This document shows positions 3,916 through 14,871 of a stretch of 64,000 bases of DNA, piece by piece (position 1 is the first letter of the stretch; each line of letters opens with the position of its first letter). A program made the translations under genes and the position numbers. The DNA lies in the NCBI GenBank assembly GCA_945881865.1, contig CAMCVK010000010.1, positions 62,001-126,000 on the forward strand, written 5' to 3'. The notes under the pieces were generated by a model, which saw only the letters and a list, made by a program, of their open reading frames with translations, did not search any database and was not told the DNA's origin. The stretch comes from Fimbriimonas ginsengisoli Gsoil 348. Lineage in GTDB: Bacteria > Armatimonadota > Fimbriimonadia > Fimbriimonadales > Fimbriimonadaceae.

Positions 3916-4647
3916 ATGGCACCACGGTACAAGCACGTCATTGTTGTGGGCGCCTCGGCAGGAATCGGGGCCGAACTCGTGCTTCAATTGGCCGCCGCCG
4001 GAAGCAAGGTCGCCGCGCTCGCCCGCCGCGAGGAGCCGCTGAAACGCCTTGCCGCCGCGCACCCGGGACAGGTTTTGCCAATCGTGCACGACGTGACCGA
4101 TTTCGACTCCGTCCCCGCCGTTTTTGAGTCCGTCGCCCAGCAGCTTGGCGGGTGCGACCTAGTGATTTACTCGAGCGGCGTCATGCCCACCGTCGGTCCC
4201 GCCGAGTTCGACTTTGCGAAGGACCGCCAAATGTTCGAGGTGAACGTTTTGGGCGGAATCGCCTGGCTGGACGCCGTCGCCGAGCGGTTTCAATCCACCG
4301 GTTCGGGCACCATCGTCATGATCGGCAGCGTCGCGGGCGACCGGGGCCGACGCGGCCAGCCGGGCTATAACGCCAGCAAGGCCGCCGTTGCCGCGTTTGC
4401 CGAAGCCCTCCGCAACCGCCTTTCCGGGAAAGGCGTCACCGTGACCACCGTCAAGCCGGGGCCGGTTCAAACCGAGCTCGTTGCGGCCCTCGGCTTCAAA
4501 AACGCGATGCCGGTTGCCGACGCCGCCGCACGCATCATCCGGCTGGCGCCCTCTGGCCGCGAGGTCTATCTCAAGTTTTCGCACCGGGTCATTTTCGCCG
4601 TCATCCGCCTCATGCCGTCATGGATCTTTCGCCACATTCCTATATAG
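3916..4647 (+). CDS. dprE2: DprE2-like SDR, polyprenylphosphoryl-2-keto-erythropentose reductase
   Basis: A 243-residue classical SDR with nucleotide motif GASAGIG (12-18), S138, Y151 and K155 (YNASK). It ends in a hydrophobic and basic tail (VIRLMPSWIFRHIPI) that matches the style of the mycobacterial DprE2 C-terminus, which I recall ending in IFRKLPI. DprE2 reduces the keto intermediate left by DprE1 to the arabinose form. Assignment rests on this tail and on the location between ubiA and dprE1; the catalytic motifs alone would fit many SDRs. Its end overlaps the dprE1 start by 28 bases. Confidence 0.72.
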   Translation: MAPRYKHVIVVGASAGIGAELVLQLAAAGSKVAALARREEPLKRLAAAHPGQVLPIVHDVTDFDSVPAVFESVAQQLGGCDLVIYSSGVMPTVGPAEFDFAKDRQMFEVNVLGGIAWLDAVAERFQSTGSGTIVMIGSVAGDRGRRGQPGYNASKAAVAAFAEALRNRLSGKGVTVTTVKPGPVQTELVAALGFKNAMPVADAAARIIRLAPSGREVYLKFSHRVIFAVIRLMPSWIFRHIPI

Positions 4648-6044
4648 GTCCATTTCGACGACTTGCGGGTTTTGGGCAGACCGAGTTCGGCGACTCGCGC
4701 GTGTGCTCGCCGACCTCGGACGACGAAGTCGCGACGATCCTTCAAACCGCCGCCGCTCAAGGCCGCCAGGTGATGCTTCGCGGGGCGGGACGAAGCTACG
4801 GCGACGCCAGCATCGCCGGAGAAACCGTCGCCATTCGGCAAGACCGCATGAACCGCGTCCTCGCCTGGGACCCCGCGACCGGAACCCTCGACGTCGAGGG
4901 CGGAATCACCCTGGAGGAAATCTGGCGATACGTATTGCCCGACGGTTTTTGGCCGCCGGTCGTCAGCGGAACCATGAAGACCTCCGTCGCCGGTGGTCTC
5001 GCCATGAATATTCACGGCAAGAACAACTGGAGCCAAGGCACGCTGGGCGAGCACGTCGATTGGATGGACATCATGCTGGCCGGCGGCGAGGTTCGCCGCC
5101 TGATTCCCGCCGACCCGTTGTTCTTCCAAATTATCTCGGGCTTCGGGCTGCTCGGCATCATCCTTCGCGCGCGGCTGCGGATGAAGCGGATCCGGTCCGG
5201 CTCGCTTCAGGTGGTGCAGCGCAGCGTGCGGAACTGGCAAGAGCAATTTGACACGTTCGAAGAGTTTCAGGACCGGTACGAGTACATCGTGAGCTGGGTC
5301 GATGGATTCCACGACGGCCGCGGAACGTTCCAGGCCGCGAACCACCACCCGGACGACGAGCCCCACACGCTCCACGCGTCGGCCCAGGAGCTCAGCCCAT
5401 ACTTGATTGGCTTCTATCCGAAATCGCGTGCCTGGCGGACGTTGCGCCACTTCACCAACCCAACCGGGATGCGGCTGCTTTCGGCCGCCAAATACCGCGC
5501 GGGCCGCCTCACCGGAAGCGAAAAAGCCGCGCAGATGCCGCTGGTGGCGTTCCATTTCCCGCTGGATTTCGTGCAGGACTGGGAGCGCGCCTACCTTCCC
5601 GGCGGATTGCTGCAGTTCCAGGTCGGCCTTGGCCGCGAAAACGCCCGCGAGGTCATCCCGGGGTTGCTGGCGCGCAGCCAAGCCGCGCAGCTGTGGCCGT
5701 ACCTCATCGTGATGAAGCGGCATCGCCCCGATCCGACGCTGATGAGTTATCTGGTAGATGGCTATAGCATCGCGATGGACTTCCATCGCACCGATTTGAA
5801 CGCCGCCCAGTTGGATCAGCTTTTCAAAGAGATGACGGCCGACGTCCTTGCGGCGGGCGGCAAGTTCTACATGGCCAAGGACGCGCGACTCACCGCCGAC
5901 GAAGCCAAGCAGAGCCTCGGCGAAGGGCCGTATCACCAGTTCCTGGCAACCAAGCGCGAACTCGACCCGACCGGCCTGCTGGTCTCTGCGCTCGGCGCAC
6001 GAATCGGCCTTTGCGATATCCCAAGTATGCTAAGCTCACCATAA
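4620..6044 (+). CDS. dprE1: DprE1-like FAD oxidase, polyprenylphosphoryl-ribose 2'-epimerase subunit
   Basis: A 474-residue FAD-linked oxidase of the vanillyl-alcohol-oxidase fold. Landmarks align residue for residue with M. tuberculosis DprE1 as I remember it: RGAGRSYGD with Y60, HGKN with H132 and K134, and TAKDSR-like MAKDAR with K420 (K418 there). The benzothiazinone-reactive Cys387 position aligns with Ala385 in GYSIAMDF. It oxidises the ribose 2'-OH of the lipid-linked substrate. The last ~10 residues (CDIPSMLSSP) run past the expected end and overlap a TATGCT box for the next gene, so the 3' end may have been reshaped when the RHS block arrived. Confidence 0.85.
   Translation: MDLSPHSYIGPFRRLAGFGQTEFGDSRVCSPTSDDEVATILQTAAAQGRQVMLRGAGRSYGDASIAGETVAIRQDRMNRVLAWDPATGTLDVEGGITLEEIWRYVLPDGFWPPVVSGTMKTSVAGGLAMNIHGKNNWSQGTLGEHVDWMDIMLAGGEVRRLIPADPLFFQIISGFGLLGIILRARLRMKRIRSGSLQVVQRSVRNWQEQFDTFEEFQDRYEYIVSWVDGFHDGRGTFQAANHHPDDEPHTLHASAQELSPYLIGFYPKSRAWRTLRHFTNPTGMRLLSAAKYRAGRLTGSEKAAQMPLVAFHFPLDFVQDWERAYLPGGLLQFQVGLGRENAREVIPGLLARSQAAQLWPYLIVMKRHRPDPTLMSYLVDGYSIAMDFHRTDLNAAQLDQLFKEMTADVLAAGGKFYMAKDARLTADEAKQSLGEGPYHQFLATKRELDPTGLLVSALGARIGLCDIPSMLSSP
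6026..6031 (+). promoter_or_regulatory. -10 box (TATGCT) at the head of the RHS block
   Basis: TATGCT lies within the last codons of dprE1, 12 bases before ATG 6044 of the first RHS fragment. It could start transcription of the accessory block independently of the sugar operon. No clear -35 is visible. Confidence 0.4.
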
Positions 6045-6418
6045 TGAACTTGACGAGTGCGCGGACGACGTTCGTCTATGATGCGGTTGGAAACGTGCTT
6101 CAGAAATGGCATCAGGGTTCCGATCCGATCACGATGGCCTACGATGCCGCCCAGCGGTTGGTGACTTCGATGGATGGGCCGACGCTGGTGACGTTCACCT
6201 ACGATGCGAGCGGAAACTTGACAAATGAGAACCGGGGCGGAGTTCAGACGTCATATAGCTACGACAACGAGAATCGTCTTGCGGTTCAGACGGACCCAGA
6301 TGGTTCGAAGACGACGATGACCTACCAGCCGGATGGTCTTCGTCGAACGCGGAGGACGCCTTCGGTTCTCACGACGTTTGTTTGGGATGAAAAGAACTAC
6401 CTTGGAGAAGTGATCTAG
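6044..6418 (+). CDS. RHS/YD-repeat fragment, N-terminally truncated
   Basis: The ORF of 124 residues starts at ATG 6044, whose A is the last base of the dprE1 stop. It contains several YD/RHS repeats (FVYDAVGNV, TFTYDASGNL, YSYDNENRL) and ends at FVWDEKNYLGEVI, the strand that normally leads into the RHS core. A complete RHS protein would have a thousand or more residues upstream. The stop TAG comes 2 bases before the ATG of the core ORF, so shell and core are separate reading frames here. It may be a translated leader for cassette 1 or a decayed remnant. Confidence 0.7.
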   Translation: MNLTSARTTFVYDAVGNVLQKWHQGSDPITMAYDAAQRLVTSMDGPTLVTFTYDASGNLTNENRGGVQTSYSYDNENRLAVQTDPDGSKTTMTYQPDGLRRTRRTPSVLTTFVWDEKNYLGEVI

Positions 6419-6420
6419 TT

Positions 6421-7230
6421 ATGGCAATGGCGGCGGTTTACACGACGATTAACGGAATGCTGGTTCATGAGAGCCGGGGTGGGGTGGAGTCTTTCTACTT
6501 CCCGGACACTCTGGGCAACCTCACCACCGTTCGCAGCGCGACCGGTGTGAAGACCTACGGCGCTGAGTACTGGCCGTACGGAGAAATTCAGACCGAAACG
6601 GGCACTAACCCCAGCCCTTGGAGCTTCGTCGGTCTTCTCGGCTACCTGAGAGACACGGCAAGCCGCCTCTACGTCCGCGCCAGGCACTACCGCCCCGGCC
6701 TAGCCAGGTGGCAGACCGTCGATCCGCTCTGGCCGGATGAAAGCGCGTACGGGTACGCCAACGCGTCACCGGTTTACCTTCGAGACCCCAGCGGTCAGGC
6801 CTGTAGTGACCCGTGTGCAGATGATGGTTCGCCTGTTGGAGGCTGCATTGCCTTGTTTTGCTCGATAAAGGCGTCGTTCGACTCAATAAAGAAAGCCCTC
6901 GGGCTCAATGGAGAATGGGACAAACTCATCAAGAAAATTCTTGGGTTGATCAAGGAGACCAAAGACTTTGATCCTAGCGGTTGCTGTAAGCAAGCTCACT
7001 CGGGTGGCTTCCCCACCAGCAAAGGCGGGCTAATTGCTGCACTTATTGGATTCGTCTGCAGATCAACTAAGACAAAGGCACCGAACCCTCGGTGGTGTAA
7101 AAAACTCCATCCTGACGATACAGGGGACTCCGACCGACCCACATCGGCTGGCTCAGGATGCCGTGGTTGTTGCAACTCCATGTTTACTAGGGGCACTAGT
7201 CTGTATGCAACGTGCTTAAACGTATGCTGA
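6421..7230 (+). CDS. RHS core with Cys-rich C-terminal tip, cassette 1
   Basis: This 269-residue protein has an RHS core in residues ~8-112 (VHESRGGV, LYVRARHYRPGLARWQTVDP), a DPSG hinge near 122, then a unique tip of about 145 residues. The tip has around 17 Cys, an amphipathic Lys-rich helix near 150-175, a short hydrophobic segment (LIAALIGFVC) and a final Cys cluster, C-x2-CC followed by two spaced Cys. I know similar Cys clusters at the ends of RHS proteins but no activity. It lacks a signal peptide. Translation starts at ATG 6421 behind GGAGAAGTGATC, and it overlaps the next gene. Probably a toxin tip; its target is unknown. Confidence 0.8.
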   Translation: MAMAAVYTTINGMLVHESRGGVESFYFPDTLGNLTTVRSATGVKTYGAEYWPYGEIQTETGTNPSPWSFVGLLGYLRDTASRLYVRARHYRPGLARWQTVDPLWPDESAYGYANASPVYLRDPSGQACSDPCADDGSPVGGCIALFCSIKASFDSIKKALGLNGEWDKLIKKILGLIKETKDFDPSGCCKQAHSGGFPTSKGGLIAALIGFVCRSTKTKAPNPRWCKKLHPDDTGDSDRPTSAGSGCRGCCNSMFTRGTSLYATCLNVC

Positions 7231-7850
7231 GGCGACCCACTTGTAAAAAGAGCTTTGTGGTCCTTTTCGTGGGGCTTCAACTTGTCGCTTGTAGGACCGC
7301 GCCGGAGCCGTCTAAGAAACCGAATGCTCCTGAAGAGGTGGCAATGCTTGCAACCAGGGAGTTGAACAAGGCGATCGACGCTGGTGATCGGTCGTCTGCT
7401 GAGCTCGACCGGCTCCGTGATCAACTGTCACCTAAAATTGGCGATGAGACGCTGCGCGACATGCTGCTGGGATCGTACTCGGCTTCTGTGAAGAGGGACC
7501 TTACTGCGGCGTGGTATCCAGGGAGAGAAGCAAGGCTTGGGCCCAAATTCGTGGCGGAAGTCGTCGACAAAAATGACGGCAAAGTGGGATCTCTATTGCT
7601 CGCGTTTGCCGGTAGTTTCGTCGCAGGCGGAGGCCAATTCTCGGAGCCGATTACGGAAATCGTTGATGCGTATGCGAGATATAGAAAGAGATTTCCGACC
7701 GAATCTGGATCTGCTATTTCGTTACTTGCTTATGATGGGGGAGAGAAATCTCAAATTATTCTCAAAGAGATAAGCCTTACTGGATCTCCTGCGGCGAGAT
7801 CAGCAGCGAAAGCTGTGTTAACAAGAATAAAGACACAGGGCAAACTATAA
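7224..7850 (+). CDS. lipoprotein, candidate immunity protein for cassette 1
   Basis: About 208 residues with an N-terminal lipoprotein signal ending in the lipobox LVAC (Cys about residue 23), so it is probably anchored at a membrane facing the periplasm. The remainder is mostly helical and charged (many KxLDRLRD-like stretches) and may form a helical repeat fold. ATG 7224 overlaps the tip's stop codon (ATGCTGA), and GTG 7212 is an in-frame alternative. Tight coupling to the tip gene is what one expects of an immunity gene. I recognise no family. A periplasmic anchor would imply that the tip acts in the periplasm or envelope. Confidence 0.7.
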   Translation: MLRRPTCKKSFVVLFVGLQLVACRTAPEPSKKPNAPEEVAMLATRELNKAIDAGDRSSAELDRLRDQLSPKIGDETLRDMLLGSYSASVKRDLTAAWYPGREARLGPKFVAEVVDKNDGKVGSLLLAFAGSFVAGGGQFSEPITEIVDAYARYRKRFPTESGSAISLLAYDGGEKSQIILKEISLTGSPAARSAAKAVLTRIKTQGKL

Positions 7851-7865
7851 ATGAGCGGGCTCATT

Positions 7866-7968
7866 CGATGACCTACCAGCAGGATGGCCTTCGTCGAACG
7901 AGGAGGACGCCTTCGGTTCTCACGACGTTTGTTTGGGATGGAACGGACTACCTTCAGGAGAGAAGCTG
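7866..7968 (+). pseudogene. truncated RHS-repeat leader of cassette 2
   Basis: Positions 7866-7950 repeat the 3' end of the RHS fragment at 6318-6400 (MTYQxDGLRRTRRTPSVLTTFVWDGTDYL) without a start of its own. The copy breaks after GACTACCTT and is followed by AGGAGAG, a ribosome site 7 bases before the cassette 2 ATG. Confidence 0.65.
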
Positions 7969-8811
7969 ATGCCGGTTGCAACGTACACAACGATTAACGG
8001 GATGCTGGTTCATGAGAGCCGGGGCGGGGTGGAGTCTTTCTACTTCCCCGACACACTGGGCAGCCTCACGACGGTTCGCAGCGCGACCGGCGTAAAGACC
8101 TACGGTGCCGAGTATTGGCCGTACGGGGAGATCCAGACGGAAACGGGCACCAACCCCAGCCCCTGGAGCTTCGTTGGACTTCTTGGCTACCTGAGAGACA
8201 CGGCTTCCCGCCTCTACGTCCGCGCTAGGCACTACCGGCCAGGCCTGGCAAGATGGCAGACGGTCGATCCACTCTGGCCGGACGAGAGCGCCTACGGATA
8301 TGTAAATGAAAGTCCAATGGAGACTGTGGACGTGCAAGGGAGATGGCCAGAAAAGCCCCCGTTTTTCGAGATCTTCCCAAAACCACGATGGTGGCCCCGA
8401 CAGATTCCGTGGCCGGGCCATATTTCACCGATACCAGGAATATGGCCCGGGCCAAAGCATCGTCCACGGCCGGTTGGCGGCGGTAGAGCAAACTACGACA
8501 ACGGCTGGACGCCGGGGGATTTCGGCTATGGGAACTACTGCGGATACTGGCGGAATGGTAAGGTCCAACACTGCAAAGAAGCGGGTGAAATTGATTGTCT
8601 GGACAAAGCGTGCAAGAAGCATGACGATGACAACCCAGGCGTCATCGACTATATTCCTGGAAGGCATCATCGAACTCTATGCTTTTCCCTTGCAAAATGC
8701 TCTTGCGTATCGGAGTATCCAATGCCTGGCCGAGATCAAAACAACTGCCTCGTAGCGAGGAGCAAAATGATGGCCCTTTATTGTCTTCATGGAGCGATAG
8801 TTGTTTGGTGA
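7969..8811 (+). CDS. RHS core with phospholipase A2-like tip, cassette 2
   Basis: A 280-residue protein with start ATG 7969 behind AGGAGAG. The RHS core spans residues ~5-110, with a DVQG variant in place of the usual DPxG hinge. The tip begins with a proline/tryptophan-rich linker (PKPRWWPRQIPWPG), then a phospholipase A2-like region: calcium-loop-like YCGYWRNG, followed by the helix LDKACKKHDDD carrying the His-Asp pair, and further Cys that could form disulfides. This suggests cleavage of glycerophospholipids of a target membrane. The downstream ankyrin gene overlaps its stop. Fold and motif are convincing; activity is inferred. Confidence 0.8.
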   Translation: MPVATYTTINGMLVHESRGGVESFYFPDTLGSLTTVRSATGVKTYGAEYWPYGEIQTETGTNPSPWSFVGLLGYLRDTASRLYVRARHYRPGLARWQTVDPLWPDESAYGYVNESPMETVDVQGRWPEKPPFFEIFPKPRWWPRQIPWPGHISPIPGIWPGPKHRPRPVGGGRANYDNGWTPGDFGYGNYCGYWRNGKVQHCKEAGEIDCLDKACKKHDDDNPGVIDYIPGRHHRTLCFSLAKCSCVSEYPMPGRDQNNCLVARSKMMALYCLHGAIVVW

Positions 8812-9295
8812 CAAGCTGAAATACGTTCCCGTGCGGGCCCTCGCAATTACGTTTGCCATCATGGTCACGATCGTGCTCGTCCTCAGCCCGATACCAATGA
8901 ACAACACGCAGGCGCCACCACTAGCGATTGCGGCCGGGACGGGCAATGAGGCAGAGGTGCGTCGGCTGATCGCCGAAGGCGCGCAGCTAGACGTACAAGA
9001 CTTCGGGGGCAACACGCCCCTCTCCTATGCCGTTGGGACTGGCCATTTCAAAATTGCACAACTGCTGCTTGACAAAGGGGCCAATATGTACGTACGTAAT
9101 CGGCAGGGCATGACCGTTATCGAGAGACGACGGTGGCTCGCGAACGCTCGTCCCGACCTTCCGCAATACCGAGAGGATACGCTGTCGGACCGACGCGGAC
9201 TTGCATGGCTGCTTGCGGCGGAGAAGCGAATGAAGGCGCAAAAGTCGAAGACGCAGCCTCCGGAGATTAAGAAAATTGACGATTCTTCAAATTGA
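8801..9295 (+). CDS. membrane-anchored ankyrin-repeat protein, candidate immunity for cassette 2
   Basis: A 164-residue protein with one N-terminal transmembrane helix (~residues 11-30) and two or three ankyrin repeats (PLAIAAGTGNEAEVRRLI, TPLSYAVGTGHFKIAQLL). TTG 8801 has GGAG 6 bases upstream and overlaps the end of the tip gene by 11 bases. Ankyrin proteins are known immunity partners in polymorphic toxin systems, and an anchored repeat domain could bind a phospholipase tip at the periplasmic face. Its stop TGA (9293-9295) lies inside the next copy of the RHS-repeat sequence, so the cassette junction falls exactly at its end. Confidence 0.75.
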   Translation: MFGDKLKYVPVRALAITFAIMVTIVLVLSPIPMNNTQAPPLAIAAGTGNEAEVRRLIAEGAQLDVQDFGGNTPLSYAVGTGHFKIAQLLLDKGANMYVRNRQGMTVIERRRWLANARPDLPQYREDTLSDRRGLAWLLAAEKRMKAQKSKTQPPEIKKIDDSSN

Positions 9296-9485
9296 GAGCC
9301 GGGGCGGAGTTCAGACGTCTTATAGCTACGACAACGAGAATCGTCTTGCGGTTCAAACGGATCCAGATGGTTCGAAGACGACGATGACCTACCAGCCGGA
9401 TGGCCTTCGTCGAACGCGGAGGACGCCTTCGGTTCTCACGACGTTTGTTTGGGATGGAACGGACTACCTTGGAGAGGTGATCTAG
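9293..9485 (+). pseudogene. truncated RHS-repeat leader of cassette 3
   Basis: The segment repeats positions ~6226-6418 almost exactly (GGVQTSYSYDNENRL through WDGTDYLGEVI). It is open from a TTG at 9276 inside the ankyrin gene but has no credible start of its own. Its last codons GAG-GTG-ATC-TAG also form an extended ribosome binding site for cassette 3. Confidence 0.7.
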
Positions 9486-9487
9486 TT

Positions 9488-10372
9488 ATGGCGATGGCGG
9501 CGGTTTACACGACGATCAACGGGATGCTGGTTCATGAGAGCCGGGGTGGGGTGGAGTCTTTCTACTTCCCCGACACCCTGGGCAGCCTCACCACGGTTCG
9601 CAGCGCAACCGGCGTGAAGACCTATGGTGCCGAGTACTGGCCGTACGGCGAAATCCAAACCGAAACGGGCACGAACCCCAGCCCCTGGAGCTTCGTTGGG
9701 CTTCTCGGCTACCTGAGAGACACGGCTTCCCGTCTCTACGTCCGCGCTAGGCATTACCGCCCCGGCCTAGCCAGGTGGCAAACGGTAGATCCACTCTGGC
9801 CACGGCTCTCACCTTATGGCTACGGTCGCCTCCGTCCGGTCAGCGAAACCGATCCAAGTGGGCTTATTCCGGCGAATATTATTGCAGGGGTAATTGGGGG
9901 ACTTTTGAGTTGCCTCATCTCAGCAGGTATTTCCTGGATAGGCAGCCACCTTAAGGGGGAGGGCCCGGCGGAAGCGAACTGCAAAGCTGGAACAAAATGC
10001 GTTGCCAAGGGCCTTGGAACTGGGATCGGTATCGCTTCAATGAACCCGGCTCTCGCTTGCGCACTCTCGATAGCGTCGGAAGTGATTAGTTTGCTGGCCG
10101 ACGCCTTGTGCCCCCTTGCTGACGCGAAGTGCCCAAAGTTGCCGAGCCTATGCGACTTGACAAAGGCGGCAATATCAGGGGCAGGGGGTTGCTTAGGTTG
10201 GTTCGGGGCCAAAGACGGGGTGATCAGTCAAGTAGGTGAAATGCTTGGTTGGATCGGAAGAGAACTTGCGAAGTACGCGGGCGGAATTCTGGCTAGTTCG
10301 CTGGGCTCAATCATCTCCGGCTCCGGCAAGATTGCCTGCGACTGGGCGGGACCCGCATTCGGGAAGGGATGA
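9488..10372 (+). CDS. RHS core with glycine-rich membrane-active-type tip, cassette 3
   Basis: A 294-residue protein; the RHS core is in residues ~8-108 and a DPSG hinge near 122. The tip of about 170 residues is rich in Gly, Ala, Ile and Ser, with several hydrophobic stretches (IIAGVIGGLLSCLISAGISW, GILASSLGSIISGSG) and spaced Cys. This composition resembles pore-forming or membrane-inserting domains with glycine-zipper helices more than an enzyme. ATG 9488 follows GAGGTGATC. Its stop shares ATGA with the next gene, which encodes a multi-pass membrane protein. A membrane-acting tip with a membrane immunity protein is a sensible pairing, but inferred. Confidence 0.75.
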   Translation: MAMAAVYTTINGMLVHESRGGVESFYFPDTLGSLTTVRSATGVKTYGAEYWPYGEIQTETGTNPSPWSFVGLLGYLRDTASRLYVRARHYRPGLARWQTVDPLWPRLSPYGYGRLRPVSETDPSGLIPANIIAGVIGGLLSCLISAGISWIGSHLKGEGPAEANCKAGTKCVAKGLGTGIGIASMNPALACALSIASEVISLLADALCPLADAKCPKLPSLCDLTKAAISGAGGCLGWFGAKDGVISQVGEMLGWIGRELAKYAGGILASSLGSIISGSGKIACDWAGPAFGKG

Positions 10373-10785
10373 GCTTAATTGTTCGTAGGGAGTGGGCTTG
10401 GATTCTTTCTTCCATTTTCTATTGGTGCGGAATCAGTGTCATTTTTTTCGCAACTTATAGTCACTCTCAACCATGGAGTGCGAAGCAACTCATTTTTCCC
10501 GGAGTCGTTGTATTCACAACTTCCGTCGTGATCGCTGCGATCGGCATCGCGAGCCGAGCGTTCGCTCGTATAGCTCTCAGCTTAGGGATGGTGGTGGTGC
10601 TTGCGATCGGCGTGGGGCAAGGCACTCCAATCCCGCCCAATGCTTGGGTTCTGGCAACTTGTCTTTTGGCAGGTGGCTGGATGTTTGAAGTTTGCGATTT
10701 TGGAAATTCTATCGCAAAAAATTCAGTTTCTCGATCACATGAAAGACAAAAGATGGCGTATGACGACAACGTACACGACGATTAA
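10369..10785 (+). CDS. four-helix membrane protein, candidate immunity for cassette 3
   Basis: A 138-residue protein with about four transmembrane helices (near 10-29, 42-62, 70-86 and 92-107), no signal peptide and no family I recognise. It starts by ATGA overlap with the tip gene. Its last ~10 codons (AYDDNVHDD) run through the start of cassette 4 in another frame, so the original C-terminus was probably replaced when cassette 4 was joined. Base composition is clearly AT-richer than the flanking chromosome. Expected to sit in the inner membrane and block the tip's insertion or pore. Confidence 0.7.
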   Translation: MSLIVRREWAWILSSIFYWCGISVIFFATYSHSQPWSAKQLIFPGVVVFTTSVVIAAIGIASRAFARIALSLGMVVVLAIGVGQGTPIPPNAWVLATCLLAGGWMFEVCDFGNSIAKNSVSRSHERQKMAYDDNVHDD

Positions 10786-11554
10786 CGGGATGCTGGTTCA
10801 TGAGAGCCGGGGTGGGGTGGAGTCTTTCTACTTCCCCGACACCCTGGGCAGCCTCACCACGGTTCGCAGCGCGACCGGTGTGAAGACCTACGGTGCTGAA
10901 TACTGGCCGTACGGGGAGATCCAGACCGAGACGGGAACAAACCCCAGCCCTTGGAGCTTCGTAGGGCTTCTTGGCTACCTGAGGGACACGGCAAGCCGCA
11001 TCTACGTCAGGGCAAGGCACTACCGCCCTGGCCTAGCCAGATGGCAAACGGTTGATCCACTGTGGCCGGGGGAAAGTGCGTATGGATACGTCGGGCAGCA
11101 GCCAGTTTATCGAGTTGATCCGACGGGAATGGGCGACAAATGTTTCATTGATGATATATGGCAGTGGCTAGTGCCAAAGGGAATTCCCCAGGCCCCGATC
11201 GTGATGCCTGATTGGTTAAGGCCACTACGACACTTTGGCGAAGTGACTAACTTCAACTATTTTAAGTGGAAGTGGGGCAATTGCTGTGGGCTAGATCAGA
11301 AATGCGGTCCGGCAAAATCTAATGGATCGTGCGCGGATAACGCCTGCGAAAAGCACGACAAATGTGTTGGACCAGACTTCTTCCCGGGGGCGGCCAACTG
11401 GCGGTCGTGTGCAGCGGGTCTGTGCTCTGACTTGAAGAAATGCTACAAAAAGAACGGGTGTGCTAGCCAGGTGACGCCTTCAAGCGAGTGCCAAGCTGCT
11501 TGGGAAGCCGGTGTTTTCTTTTGCATGCAAGCCGGGATGGTATTTGAGTCTTAA
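10760..11554 (+). CDS. RHS core with phospholipase A2-like tip, cassette 4
   Basis: A 264-residue protein. The RHS core starts almost at once (TTTYTTINGML) with a DPTG hinge near residue 122. The tip carries a second, different phospholipase A2-like region: GNCCGLDQKCG as a possible calcium loop, then ADNACEKHDKCVG with the classical C-x3-H-D-x-C arrangement, plus many other Cys. The ATG at 10760 lies within the end of the preceding immunity gene; ATG 10739 is an alternative. No strong ribosome site is visible, unlike the other cassettes, and no RHS-repeat leader remains. Overlaps the downstream membrane protein. Confidence 0.78.
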   Translation: MTTTYTTINGMLVHESRGGVESFYFPDTLGSLTTVRSATGVKTYGAEYWPYGEIQTETGTNPSPWSFVGLLGYLRDTASRIYVRARHYRPGLARWQTVDPLWPGESAYGYVGQQPVYRVDPTGMGDKCFIDDIWQWLVPKGIPQAPIVMPDWLRPLRHFGEVTNFNYFKWKWGNCCGLDQKCGPAKSNGSCADNACEKHDKCVGPDFFPGAANWRSCAAGLCSDLKKCYKKNGCASQVTPSSECQAAWEAGVFFCMQAGMVFES

Positions 11555-11846
11555 GCAACGGCTAAAGAAGTGGCTCGTTCCTGCAGGCATCGGGCTCGTG
11601 TTCCCCGGCTGTGTACTGGCCTACGAGCTTTCAGGCATCGATCCATTTGGAGTCTTTCTTGTTATGGTTTGTAGTCTGACGGTGAGCCCAATCACCATAA
11701 TTTGGGAGGCCAGGTTTATGCTCACTAAGTGTGAGCCAGGAGCTGACATTGTAATTCCTGTTTTAGCAATCTTTGCAAATACAGTTCTGCTTGTCGTAAG
11801 CCTTGTCGGATTTGGTTTTCTGGGCGCGACGGGGAGAGGGCATTGA
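11544..11846 (+). CDS. small membrane protein, candidate immunity for cassette 4
   Basis: About 100 residues from TTG 11544 (GTG 11511 gives 111), with three hydrophobic segments (LVPAGIGLVFPGCVL, VFLVMVCSLTVSPITII, VLAIFANTVLLVVSLVGFGF). The start overlaps the end of the cassette 4 tip by 11 bases, with GGGATGG upstream. No family is recognised. Position predicts immunity against the phospholipase-like tip; its small size and topology differ from the ankyrin partner of the other phospholipase-like tip. Confidence 0.62.
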   Translation: MSLKQRLKKWLVPAGIGLVFPGCVLAYELSGIDPFGVFLVMVCSLTVSPITIIWEARFMLTKCEPGADIVIPVLAIFANTVLLVVSLVGFGFLGATGRGH

Positions 11847-11870
11847 CGAGTTTCATCGACGATCCGTCTA

Positions 11871-11950
11871 TTCGTCGAACGAGGAGGACGCCTTCGGTTC
11901 TCACGACGTTTGTTTGGGATGGAACGGACTACCTTGGAGAGGTGATCTAG
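11871..11950 (+). pseudogene. truncated RHS-repeat leader of cassette 5
   Basis: The segment copies the last ~80 bases of the RHS-repeat fragment (RRTRRTPSVLTTFVWDGTDYLGEVI) right after the cassette 4 immunity gene, with no start of its own. GAGGTGATCTAG at its end again serves as ribosome site for the core ORF. Confidence 0.68.
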
Positions 11951-11952
11951 TT

Positions 11953-12816
11953 ATGGCAATGGCGGCGGTTTACACCACGGTTAACGGGATGCTGGTTCAT
12001 GAGAGCCGGGGTGGGGTTGAGTCTTTCTACTTCCCCGACACCCTGGGCAGCCTTACGACAGTCCGCAGCGCGACCGGCGTGAAGACCTACGGTGCCGAGT
12101 ACTGGCCGTATGGGGAGATCCAAACCGAAACGGGCACCAACCCAAGTCCATGGAGCTTTGTTGGGCTCTACGGATATCTCAGAGACACGGCTTCTCGCCT
12201 CTACGTCCGCGCCAGGCACTACCGGCCCGGACTGGCCAGGTGGCAGACCGTCGACCCGCTTTGGCCAGATGAAAGTGCGTATGGGTACGTCGGTAATGAC
12301 CCGAGCAGAGGCGTCGATCCAGCAGGGTATCAAAAGCTTCCGCCTAAGAAGACGAAGCTTGGGCCGACGATATGCTCTTCTCGAGTCAAAGATGTGGAGA
12401 ATCAACTGGCGGCAAGTTGTAACACGCCGGGCATGGGCGGATATTTCAGAAAGTGCATTGGCCAATATTTGCCACCTGGTAGTAATCCTGATTGCGGAGC
12501 ACATAATGGTGGGCATGGCTTCTCTGGTATTCTCTGGTCAGGTTGCTGTGAGCAAATCATGATCGATTTGTGCAATCTTATGTCCAAACGGCTGCCTCCA
12601 AAACAAGCGCATTTCCCACCTCCTCCCGAATACGTCATTCCAGCTTGTTTGGACAAAATGATAAGAGACCTAAATGGGGGCAAAAACCCAATCTCGGATT
12701 GTGTAACCGTCGGCCGCCCCTTGCGAAAAGGGGAGTGCCCGCCAGGATACTACTGGGTGCAACAGGACTGTTGCAGGGGTCACTGCGCTGAGGGCTCGTT
12801 TATGTGGCCGAGGTAA
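11953..12816 (+). CDS. RHS core with Cys/Pro-rich tip of unknown activity, cassette 5
   Basis: A 287-residue protein; the RHS core is in residues ~8-108 (with LYGYLRD where others have LLGYLRD) and a DPAG hinge near 122. The ~165-residue tip has about 14 Cys, a His/Gly patch (CGAHNGGHGFSGILWSGCC) that could be catalytic or metal-binding, a Pro-rich stretch and an end rich in Cys. I do not recognise a family. Start ATG 11953 lies behind GAGGTGATC. The downstream gene starts 30 bases after its stop, the only cassette without overlap. Confidence 0.75.
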   Translation: MAMAAVYTTVNGMLVHESRGGVESFYFPDTLGSLTTVRSATGVKTYGAEYWPYGEIQTETGTNPSPWSFVGLYGYLRDTASRLYVRARHYRPGLARWQTVDPLWPDESAYGYVGNDPSRGVDPAGYQKLPPKKTKLGPTICSSRVKDVENQLAASCNTPGMGGYFRKCIGQYLPPGSNPDCGAHNGGHGFSGILWSGCCEQIMIDLCNLMSKRLPPKQAHFPPPPEYVIPACLDKMIRDLNGGKNPISDCVTVGRPLRKGECPPGYYWVQQDCCRGHCAEGSFMWPR

Positions 12817-12846
12817 ACTTAGACCACATGCAAATTCAAAATTACA

Positions 12847-13377
12847 ATGGCAATCAGCATGAAGAATCCTAGGACTCGTGGATGGGTCGTTACGATGGGC
12901 ATCCTGTTTTTCATCGTCGCATCATTTTCAGCTGGAAAGGAGTGGTTTCGACTTGGCCACGGCTACCAGCTCGATACATTGCGGCTGAGGAAAACGTCCG
13001 TAAGGGGGGATGGCTTCACACATGTTTTGGGGCCCGTTCTCTCCGTCGCAGCAAATGGCCAAATGGATGTATTCACGATGCAATCCAGAACTGCGGGTTC
13101 GAGAGGCGAGATCCAATATGCGAGCGGACCTCCCATTGAATACCGACTCAGAGCGGTCGAGGCGAAATGGGAGTCTGACCTGAAGTTCCCTAACACGATC
13201 CAATTGGACACCCGAGACGCACTGACAATCACGCCAGACATTCTATCGGATACCAAATTGGCTCCCGATGGCTCTCTCACGGCGCGCTGCCGGGGATACT
13301 ATTTTGTGGGCATGCTGTGGCTGAAGAACCCAAGGCAAATGCCAGAAGGGGGATATATTTCTATCATAATGCATTAA
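12847..13377 (+). CDS. exported or membrane-anchored protein, candidate immunity for cassette 5
   Basis: A 176-residue protein with one N-terminal hydrophobic helix (~residues 13-30), then a mixed alpha/beta domain of about 145 residues and no lipobox. ATG 12847 is used here; ATG 12859 is in frame. It follows the cassette 5 tip by 30 bases. Like the partners of cassettes 1 and 2, its soluble part should face the periplasm, which supports an envelope site of action for these tips. No family is recognised. Confidence 0.62.
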   Translation: MAISMKNPRTRGWVVTMGILFFIVASFSAGKEWFRLGHGYQLDTLRLRKTSVRGDGFTHVLGPVLSVAANGQMDVFTMQSRTAGSRGEIQYASGPPIEYRLRAVEAKWESDLKFPNTIQLDTRDALTITPDILSDTKLAPDGSLTARCRGYYFVGMLWLKNPRQMPEGGYISIIMH

Positions 13378-13707
13378 GCTATGCAGGTTGGTCAACATGC
13401 TATGACAATAGTTCAAGTCGGTTACAAGGTACACGACGATTAACGGGATGCTGGCTCATCATTCTCTTTCTCGTGGTGCTCCACGCCAGGCACCTTTCGA
13501 GCCAATCGTAAACCCGGCAGACAGATCATGCACACCTAAACCCGGGCCGCTTTGCGCTCGCAAGGCCCCTCATTTTCGGGCCGCTTCCCTGCCCTGCAAA
13601 CAAGGGAGAAACTTGCTCCCCCAAGCCTTGCCGCACTCAGCGTCCGGGTTCTTTCGGTAGGCATGACGCCGGGCAATTCCGCTCGGCAAAACCGAAAGGA
13701 ATCCGCT
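13378..13707. other. intergenic junction with remnants, right border of RHS block
   Basis: The stretch holds the 31-base RHS-core remnant (13429-13459) and then about 250 bases without a convincing gene. GC-rich inverted-looking runs (GGGCCGC...) lie near 13545-13590. An A+G-rich AAAGGAAT precedes ATG 13708. Confidence 0.55.
13429..13459 (+). repeat. remnant of a sixth RHS core
   Basis: These 31 bases match the start of the core (codons for YTTINGMLVH) with one mismatch and then stop abruptly. This shows that a further cassette once followed, or that recombination ended here. Confidence 0.8.
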
Positions 13708-13896: not shown

Positions 13897-14871
13897 ATGA
13901 GCCTGGAGCTTTCACCGGCCGGCGTTCTCCAGCGCGAGATCGAGCAGGCGAAGCGCATCGTCATCGGCACCCACCTGAATCCCGACGGCGACGCGCTGGG
14001 GAGCGCGCTCGCCATGTCCCACTACCTGGAAGGCATCCACAAAGAGCACGCCCTGGTTTGCCACCATCCCGCGCCGCGCAACCTCGAGTTTTTGCCGGGC
14101 ATCGAGCGAGTTCAACAGTCCGCCGAAGGCGAGTTCGACCTCGGCATCATCTTGGACCTGGACGCCTACGACCGCCTGGGCGACACCGCGCCGCTCTTCG
14201 ACCGCTGCCCGCGCACCATCGTCATCGACCACCACGTTCCGATCCAAAAGCCGGGCGATGTGCGCATCATCGATACGACCGCCGCCGCAACCGCGCTCAT
14301 CCTGGGCCGCCTGTTCCGCGAGATGGGGGCCGAGTTCACCCCCGCGATCTCGACGTGCCTTTTGACCGGAATCGTCACCGATACCGGCTCGTTCCGCTAC
14401 CGCAACACCAGCGCCGAGGCGCTGAGCCTATCGGCGTTCCTGCTGGAGCACGGCGGCGACATCAACAAGGTCAGCGAAGAGATCTTCCAGCGCAAGCCGC
14501 TCGGCGGAACCCGGTTGCTGGGCCACATGCTGGACACTATGCGACTCGCCGCCGAAAACCGCATCGCCTACGGCGTTCTCACCCAGGCCGATTTTGCCGA
14601 CACCGGCGCCCTGGACCAAGACACCGAAGGCTTTGTCAACGAGATGCTGTTCATCGACACGGTGCAGATTGCGGCCCTGCTTCGCGAGGTGTCGGAAGGC
14701 ACGATTCGATGCTCGATCCGCTCGCGAAACCACCTGGACGTGGCGGCGGTCGCGCGAATTTTTGGCGGTGGCGGGCACAAAAACGCCGCCGGCTGCACGT
14801 TTTACACCTCCGTCCCCGATGCGGAAACCCAACTGGTTAAGGAACTCCAACGATGTTTGGCATTCTCTTAA
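13897..14871 (+). CDS. nrnA: DHH-family oligoribonuclease / pAp phosphatase
   Basis: A 324-residue DHH/DHHA1 phosphoesterase degrading short RNA or DNA oligonucleotides and pAp. Motifs: H26-x3-D30-x-D32 (THLNPDGD), D86-like LDLDAYDRLG, D111-H112-H113 (VIDHH), and the DHHA1 GGGGHKNAAG motif near 292-301. Start ATG 13897 with GGGGG 5 bases upstream; the frame is open further upstream to an unrelated remnant. The end overlaps truB by 19 bases, the usual nrnA-truB order of the translation/RNA cluster. No rbfA or infB lies in the window. Confidence 0.92.
   Translation: MSLELSPAGVLQREIEQAKRIVIGTHLNPDGDALGSALAMSHYLEGIHKEHALVCHHPAPRNLEFLPGIERVQQSAEGEFDLGIILDLDAYDRLGDTAPLFDRCPRTIVIDHHVPIQKPGDVRIIDTTAAATALILGRLFREMGAEFTPAISTCLLTGIVTDTGSFRYRNTSAEALSLSAFLLEHGGDINKVSEEIFQRKPLGGTRLLGHMLDTMRLAAENRIAYGVLTQADFADTGALDQDTEGFVNEMLFIDTVQIAALLREVSEGTIRCSIRSRNHLDVAAVARIFGGGGHKNAAGCTFYTSVPDAETQLVKELQRCLAFS

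What the first reader, a model, noticed from the sequence alone, without database searches (positions are those of the whole stretch)
6044..13459. An array of five RHS 'tip' genes, each with its own start, core, C-terminal domain and immunity-type gene
Seen: five ORFs share an almost identical RHS core but differ completely after the DPxG hinge, each followed by a different small gene, four of them overlapping. Known: orphan Rhs-CT/immunity modules are stored behind full rhs genes and used by recombination, but they often lack start signals. Here each tip has an ATG, most have a clear ribosome site, and no full-length shell is in the window. They may be translated as free short core-tip proteins, either loading onto a shell encoded elsewhere or acting alone.
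Basis: partly seen in the sequence, partly recalled or inferred. Interest (0 to 1): 0.9.

Follow-up and report, generated by a model that had tools for sequence, protein, structure and literature searches.

The report
Split Rhs toxins: plug-toxin gene array
In this bacterial family (Fimbriimonadaceae) the "bottle" of an Rhs toxin capsule and its "cork plus toxin" are encoded as separate genes, often with several different corks in a row, so one bottle might be armed with many toxins; the window holds five corks with their immunity-type genes but, in this genome, no bottle was found.

Summary
Window 6421-12816 holds five ORFs with near-identical ~120-residue RHS-associated cores and unrelated C-termini, each followed by its own small gene. 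The cores differ mainly at synonymous sites (dN/dS 0.02-0.05).

Relatives show what they are. In at least seven genera of Fimbriimonadaceae (Armatimonadota) a long Rhs shell ORF (~890-1270 aa) stops 14-36 nt before the core of a separate tip ORF, often with overlapping stop/start; more tips commonly follow in tandem. Shell-to-tip frame offset is random (6/5/4), start codons sit at fixed positions, and 77% of tips have a Shine-Dalgarno-like motif against 19% background. This is a split Rhs gene, cut between barrel and C-terminal aspartyl-protease plug. It is not a frameshift, an assembly error or a start-less recombination cassette.

Full shells are preceded by a NifU-like gene within a conserved cluster. 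The window's genome (98% complete) has neither a shell nor that gene, only the shell's last ~124 codons; the array sits between dprE1 and nrnA, which are adjacent in seven relatives.

It works like TcB/TcC (one shell, several toxin subunits) but is cut elsewhere and carries immunity-type genes. Loading in trans is inferred, not shown.

The parts
4620..6044 (+). dprE1-like oxidase gene, left flank; its stop codon overlaps the ATG of the shell remnant (TAATG)
   Evidence: dprE1 lies next to nrnA in seven relatives
6044..6418 (+). remnant of the 3' end of an Rhs shell gene (124 codons, open), ends WDEKNYLGEVI*
   Evidence: YD_repeat_2x and RHS_repeat hits; 55% identical to residues 923-1056 of the G018 shell
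6421..7230 (+). tip 1: RHS-associated core (plug) + Cys-rich C-terminal domain
   Evidence: TIGR03696 E 2e-11; CT has a 30% homologue in a tip of Uphvl-Ar2, L105
7212..7850 (+). immunity-type gene 1, lipoprotein-like N-terminus (in-frame ATG at 7224)
   Evidence: orphan paralogue, 73% identical, on contig C6
7866..7969 (+). shell 3' remnant, ends WDGTDYLQERS* (TGATG overlap with tip 2)
7969..8811 (+). tip 2: core + C-terminal domain with a phospholipase-A2-like motif (YGNYCG...DCLDKACKKHDDD)
   Evidence: TIGR03696; CT homologues in L130, L105, L200; enzyme class is inference
8801..9295 (+). immunity-type gene 2: one membrane segment + ankyrin repeats
   Evidence: Pfam Ank E 8e-12; homologue sits next to a tip-2-like CT in L130
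9290..9485 (+). shell 3' remnant, ends WDGTDYLGEVI*
9488..10372 (+). tip 3: core + Gly-rich hydrophobic C-terminal domain (possible membrane-active toxin, inference)
   Evidence: 34% homologue in the G008 array (L076)
10369..10785 (+). immunity-type gene 3, multi-pass membrane protein
10760..11554 (+). tip 4: core + C-terminal domain with a PLA2-like motif (GNCCG...CADNACEKHDKC); no shell remnant upstream
   Evidence: TIGR03696 E 1e-11
11544..11846 (+). immunity-type gene 4, multi-pass membrane protein (alternative start GTG 11511)
11871..11950 (+). shell 3' remnant, ends WDGTDYLGEVI*
11953..12816 (+). tip 5: core + Cys-rich C-terminal domain of unknown family
12847..13377 (+). immunity-type gene 5, N-terminal membrane anchor
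13429..13459 (+). sixth core start, truncated
   Evidence: (D3 family)
13903..14871 (+). nrnA, right flank

Best explanation
The five ORFs are the plug-plus-toxin genes of a split Rhs polymorphic-toxin system. SHOWN by sequence: in this family the Rhs cocoon gene is often divided into two ORFs, a shell (N-terminal part and beta-barrel) and a tip (C-terminal aspartyl-protease plug of ~120 residues plus a variable toxin), separated by a stop codon and a new start with its own ribosome site; further tip/immunity pairs often stand in tandem behind the first. INFERRED: each tip is made as a separate protein, inserts its plug into the open end of the barrel made by the shell, threads its toxin inside, and self-cleaves at the conserved Asp pair to free the toxin. 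One shell could therefore be loaded with any of several tips without DNA rearrangement. The membrane or lipoprotein immunity-type genes protect the producer, which points to toxins acting at the envelope. In the window's own genome the shell and the NifU-like gene of its cluster are absent. The array there is a shell-less store of tips and immunities, inserted between dprE1 and nrnA, that still looks intact and constrained; it may serve as immunity against kin, as a recombination stock, or as free-standing toxins.
For: Fifteen shell frames of at least 850 aa (two cut by contig ends) stop 14-36 nt before the core of a separate tip ORF, in at least seven genera, including the complete chromosome CP075366. 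Frame offsets 2/1/0 occur 6/5/4 times. Of 157 tips, 142 have a start codon close to the core, 116 of them at -15 or -18 nt; 110 of 142 have an SD-like motif against 19% background. dN/dS among the five window cores is 0.02-0.05; 60 of 70 variable sites are third positions. The shell model (pLDDT 81) is beta to its last residue and matches solved Rhs cocoons at E 5e-52. The tip profile matches the end of solved Rhs/TcC chains, just before the toxin. Rhs1 of P. laumondii has its barrel at 420-1262 and a C-terminal aspartyl-protease plug at 1263-1357 (PMC8636562), which is where the split falls. The two Asp residues are kept in 100% and 98.7% of tips, 21 residues apart. 153 CTs fall into 104 clusters. 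Precedent for one shell with several toxin subunits: YenB with YenC1/2/3 (PMC11067744).
Against: No expression or binding data. The own genome has no shell and no cluster NifU-like gene, so loading in trans cannot happen here unless the shell lies in the missing ~2%. Core constraint may reflect selection in donor lineages before the modules were assembled. Core identity falls from ~0.95 at its start to 0.80 at its end, as expected if recombination also exchanges tips. The SD-like motif partly overlaps conserved shell codons. The tip model was too poor (pLDDT 46) to show a plug fold.
Confidence: 0.72

Rival explanations
1. Classical silent orphan Rhs-CT/immunity cassettes: a DNA stock used only by recombination into a fused rhs gene; the ATGs are incidental.
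For: Shell 3' remnants of varying length lie before four of five tips and identity declines along the core, the mark of recombination tracts; the array has no shell in this genome; orphan cassettes are well known (PMC3482391).
Against: In relatives even the first tip behind a full shell is a separate ORF, so recombination into the shell locus would still give a separate tip. Start position and SD-like motif are kept across genera, also where no shell remnant is present; the core is constrained in the tip frame.
Confidence: 0.15
2. Free-standing intracellular toxin-antitoxin modules, as reported for the Salmonella orphan rhs; the core is a passive leftover.
For: Toxin and immunity genes overlap; each tip has a start; no shell in this genome; Salmonella precedent (PMC7043789).
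Against: A passive core should not be held at dN/dS 0.02-0.05 with the Asp pair kept in nearly all tips. Immunity-type proteins look membrane-bound, unlike cytosolic antitoxins.
Confidence: 0.1
3. Programmed frameshifting or stop read-through joins shell and tip into one normal Rhs protein.
For: Stop and start are adjacent, often overlapping (TAATG), and fused homologues exist in the same phylum (L028, L114, L187).
Against: Tip frame relative to shell is 2/1/0 in 6/5/4 cases and the spacer varies; one recoding signal cannot serve all three. Array tips without a shell keep the same start.
Confidence: 0.03
4. Decaying pseudogene debris of a lost rhs locus.
For: Shell reduced to its last 124 codons; truncated sixth core; no shell cluster.
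Against: All five tips and all five small genes are open; third-position bias of changes; an orphan copy of immunity gene 1 elsewhere is also open with dN/dS 0.27.
Confidence: 0.08

Closest known systems
TcB/TcC of ABC (Tc) toxins, e.g. YenB with YenC1/YenC2/YenC3 (PMC11067744)
   Same: Rhs cocoon made of two polypeptides; several alternative toxin-bearing subunits, even from a distant locus, load one shell subunit; self-cleavage before a hypervariable C-terminus.
   Different: TcC brings ~555 further residues before the region that matches the tip (TccC2 chain 6l7i_G: tip profile at 555-663 of 664). Here the cut lies at the barrel/plug border, the shell shows only RHS repeats in Pfam, and tips carry immunity-type genes and occur in tandem.
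T6SS-type Rhs effectors (Rhs1, RhsA, RhsP, Tse5, Tse15)
   Same: Shell fold, C-terminal plug with Asp pair, variable toxin, immunity gene.
   Different: Those are single polypeptides that cleave themselves; here shell and plug-toxin are separate genes, and the genes next to the shell are not T6SS parts as far as they were identified.
Orphan Rhs-CT/immunity cassettes (PMC3482391; Salmonella, PMC7043789)
   Same: Tandem core-tip/immunity modules with homology for recombination.
   Different: Conserved start and ribosome site, constrained core, and the first tip behind the full shell is itself a separate ORF.

Membership tests
RHS polymorphic toxins | RHS-associated core (TIGR03696) before a variable C-terminus | tested here: met
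   t1, t2, t4 over the curated cut-off; CT clusters
RHS polymorphic toxins | YD-repeat shell | tested here: met
   Full shells in relatives; in the window only a 124-codon remnant
RHS polymorphic toxins | Cognate immunity gene directly downstream | tested here: inconclusive
   Position and overlap met; one CT/immunity pair conserved between genera (t2/i2 and L130); protection not testable
Classical orphan Rhs-CT cassette | No independent translation signals | tested here: not met
   Conserved start codons, SD-like motif in 110/142
Classical orphan Rhs-CT cassette | Lies behind a full-length rhs gene of the same genome | tested here: not met
   No shell in the own genome; met in several relatives
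Classical orphan Rhs-CT cassette | Shared core/shell DNA that allows recombination | tested here: met
TcB/TcC (ABC toxin) | Cocoon from two polypeptides with the toxin on the second | tested here: inconclusive
   Gene structure fits; assembly of the proteins not tested
TcB/TcC (ABC toxin) | SpvB / beta-propeller part of TcB | tested here: not met
   Pfam finds only RHS_repeat in the shell L086
TcB/TcC (ABC toxin) | TcC carries a large share of the barrel | tested here: not met
   Tip starts ~120 residues before the toxin; TcC has ~555 more
TcB/TcC (ABC toxin) | TcA injector encoded in the genome | not tested
   No TcA search was run; upstream neighbours are GT2/TPR, NifU-like and small Cys-rich/Hint proteins
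Salmonella-type Rhs TA module | Intracellular toxicity neutralised by the immunity protein | not testable with these tools
   Needs expression

The most novel reading that the evidence does not exclude
A whole bacterial family uses a one-bottle, many-corks Rhs weapon: a single separately encoded cocoon is sealed in trans by any of several plug-toxin proteins made from tandem genes, helped by a dedicated glycosyltransferase / NifU-like / Hint cluster, so a cell fires a mixed toxin load without rearranging DNA.
Probability: 0.45. Interest if true: 0.88.

Novelty: new variant of a known kind. Interest (0 to 1): 0.8.

Why it matters
Rhs diversity is usually explained by recombination that swaps the C-terminus of one long gene. 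A natural split between barrel and plug would allow combinatorial arming at the protein level, give a simple two-part test system for cocoon assembly and toxin encapsulation, and explain why many short "RHS core" ORFs are not broken genes. I found no held paper that mentions Fimbriimonas with Rhs, Armatimonadetes with RHS-repeat toxins, or an Rhs/NifU/Hint cluster; most subscription papers are not in that library.

Tried and rejected
Own-genome shell searches with one shell, with PF05593 and with a shell profile found only the window remnants and unrelated RHS pieces. Pfam gave no family for the tip C-termini. The tip structure was too poor to use (pLDDT 46). Frameshift, assembly error and pseudogene readings were considered and rejected on frame offsets, recurrence in many assemblies including complete chromosomes, and substitution pattern. 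The automatic SPLIT calls include a few false ones (e.g. L040, L076:19365, L088); the counts used here come from the stricter pass, where the numbers for short fragments are still approximate.
Full report
What is in the window. Between a dprE1-like gene (ends 6044) and nrnA lie five ORFs, t1 to t5, that share an almost identical first ~115 residues and then differ completely. Each is followed by a different small gene, four of them overlapping the tip. t1, t2 and t4 score above the cut-off of TIGR03696, the RHS-associated core (t3 and t5 were not run there but share the same core). Before t1, t2, t3 and t5 lies, in a different frame, the 3' end of an Rhs shell gene, of varying length, ending in WD..xYLxE..* two bases before the tip ATG (t1, t3, t5) or overlapping it as TGATG (t2). 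t4 has no such remnant and starts inside the end of the preceding immunity-type ORF. A truncated sixth core start lies at ~13429.

Selection. Over 100 codons the five cores differ at 70 sites, 60 of them third positions; pairwise dN/dS is 0.02-0.05 with dS about 0.5-1.05. Identity falls from ~0.95 at the core start to 0.80 at its end, which suggests that recombination tracts also enter from the shell side.

The same architecture in relatives. The genome belongs to Fimbriimonadaceae, Armatimonadota (named relatives). The core profile matches in 78 of 85 genomes of the family; most of the best matches lie in open frames of about 250-400 residues, and such frames also occur in other families of the phylum. 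Many stand in tandem. In 15 cases a shell frame of at least 850 residues ends 14-36 nt upstream of a tip core: G012/L081 (1270 aa), G005/L084 (1088 and 887, the latter cut by the contig end), G005/L083 (888, cut), G018/L086 (1072), L107 (1086), L113 (1078), L119 (1272), G026/L185 (1139), G080/L186 = CP075366 (1246), G056/L192 (1248), G068/L193 (977), G033/L197 (1130) and L198 (1145), G023/L200 (1097). Many are followed by one to four more tips, most of them without a shell piece of their own.

Why this is a real split. The tip frame relative to the shell frame is 2, 1 or 0 in 6, 5 and 4 of the 15 cases, which no single recoding event explains. Start codons lie at -15 or -18 nt from the core in 116 of the 142 tips with a start, whether or not a shell precedes them, and 110 of 142 have a Shine-Dalgarno-like motif, against 19% of random 15-mers from the same loci. 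The motif overlaps codons for the shell's last residues (LGEV, LQE), so in part it may come free with the protein sequence; array tips without a shell remnant keep starts all the same. Fused Rhs genes of the ordinary kind also exist in the phylum (L028, L029, L048, L049, L114, L187, L191), so the split is an alternative state within a known family.

Where the cut lies. The shell of G018 is predicted as a continuous beta structure to its last residue (pLDDT 81) and matches solved Rhs cocoons over its whole length (E 5e-52; T6SS Rhs, teneurins, Tc BC; global superposition is loose, TM 0.3-0.5). The tip profile matches the last ~100 residues before the toxin in TcC, RhsP, Tse5 and others. In Rhs1 the barrel spans 420-1262 and the C-terminal plug, an aspartyl protease, 1263-1357 (PMC8636562). 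The split thus falls at the border of barrel and plug. The two Asp residues of the tip core, 21 apart, are present in 100% and 98.7% of 157 tips. That they are the protease pair is inferred from general knowledge of TccC3 and from the cleavage mutants named (TcC D651A; Tse15 D1369N, D1391N).

The cluster around full shells. In all eleven split-shell loci that were examined with enough upstream sequence, a NifU_N-like protein of ~120-145 residues lies about 160-1100 nt before the shell (Pfam NifU_N E 2.5e-20 in L084). Where it could be seen, a large glycosyltransferase family 2 protein with TPR repeats lies before it in most of these loci, and a small Cys/Gly/Pro-rich protein often follows it, in L113 and L119 with a weak Hint match. 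Fused shells in G009, G039, G061 and L114 have the NifU-like gene nearby too, so the cluster is older than, or independent of, the split. Its role (maturation, modification or export) is unknown.

The own genome. G000 (3.23 Mb, 26 contigs, 98.2% complete) has no shell by three searches and no cluster NifU-like gene. G008 (4 contigs, 99%) likewise has a tip array with only a 245-residue shell piece and no cluster NifU-like gene (its one weak match covers only the first ~84 positions and is probably the housekeeping protein). In seven relatives dprE1 stands directly before nrnA, so the array was most likely inserted there in this lineage. A paralogue of immunity-type gene 1 (73% identical, dN/dS 0.27) stands alone on contig C6 with ~75-100 bp of shell remnant at its end, a sign that immunities can be kept apart from toxins.

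What the tips may do. t2 and t4 carry the motif YGNYCG/GNCCG...D..C..HD typical of phospholipase A2-like proteins (class assigned from motif and general knowledge, no Pfam match). t3 is Gly-rich and hydrophobic. All five small genes look like lipoproteins or membrane proteins (and the sequence itself), which suits toxins that act on the envelope. A t2-like C-terminus in L130 is followed by an ankyrin gene related to i2, which supports the pairing.

Most likely mechanism. Shell and tip are made separately and the tip's plug closes the barrel, much as TcC completes TcB. YenB is known to take up YenC1, YenC2 and YenC3, the last from a distant locus (PMC11067744), so loading of a cocoon in trans by alternative toxin subunits has a precedent. 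In the window's genome this step is not possible with what is assembled. There the array is best read as a shell-less store of tips and immunities that is recent enough, or useful enough, to be intact.

Status. Split gene structure, conserved starts, constraint, missing shell: shown. Separate translation: strongly supported, not observed. Loading in trans, self-cleavage, toxicity, immunity, envelope target: inferred.

Noticed in passing
L017 (G000 contig C6) 10024-10650, strand -: Orphan paralogue of immunity-type gene 1 (73% identical), open, with a 75-100 bp shell/tip remnant at its 3' end and no toxin next to it.
   Followed up: partly
L018 (G000 contig C11) 8951-9961: A solitary split-type tip of another subfamily (core 41% identical), with a WNESEHLQERS* remnant and its own ATG.
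   Followed up: partly
L081, L084, L086, L107, L113, L119, L131, L197, L198, L200 (upstream of the shells): Recurrent cluster of a large family-2 glycosyltransferase/TPR protein, a NifU-like protein and a small Cys/Gly-rich (sometimes Hint) protein before Rhs shells; the NifU-like gene also accompanies fused shells.
   Followed up: partly
window 6041-6047: The stop of dprE1 overlaps the ATG of the 124-codon shell remnant (TAATG), so the remnant could be translated by coupling.
   Followed up: no
L183 (G077:C1) around 1957351-1960571: A shell in two adjacent frames (759 and 347 residues) before five tips; possibly a second break in the shell, a pseudogene or a sequencing error.
   Followed up: no
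G045:C1, around 2.59-2.63 Mb and 0.9 Mb: Dozens of RHS pieces of other subfamilies, apparently a hotspot of partial rhs genes.
   Followed up: no
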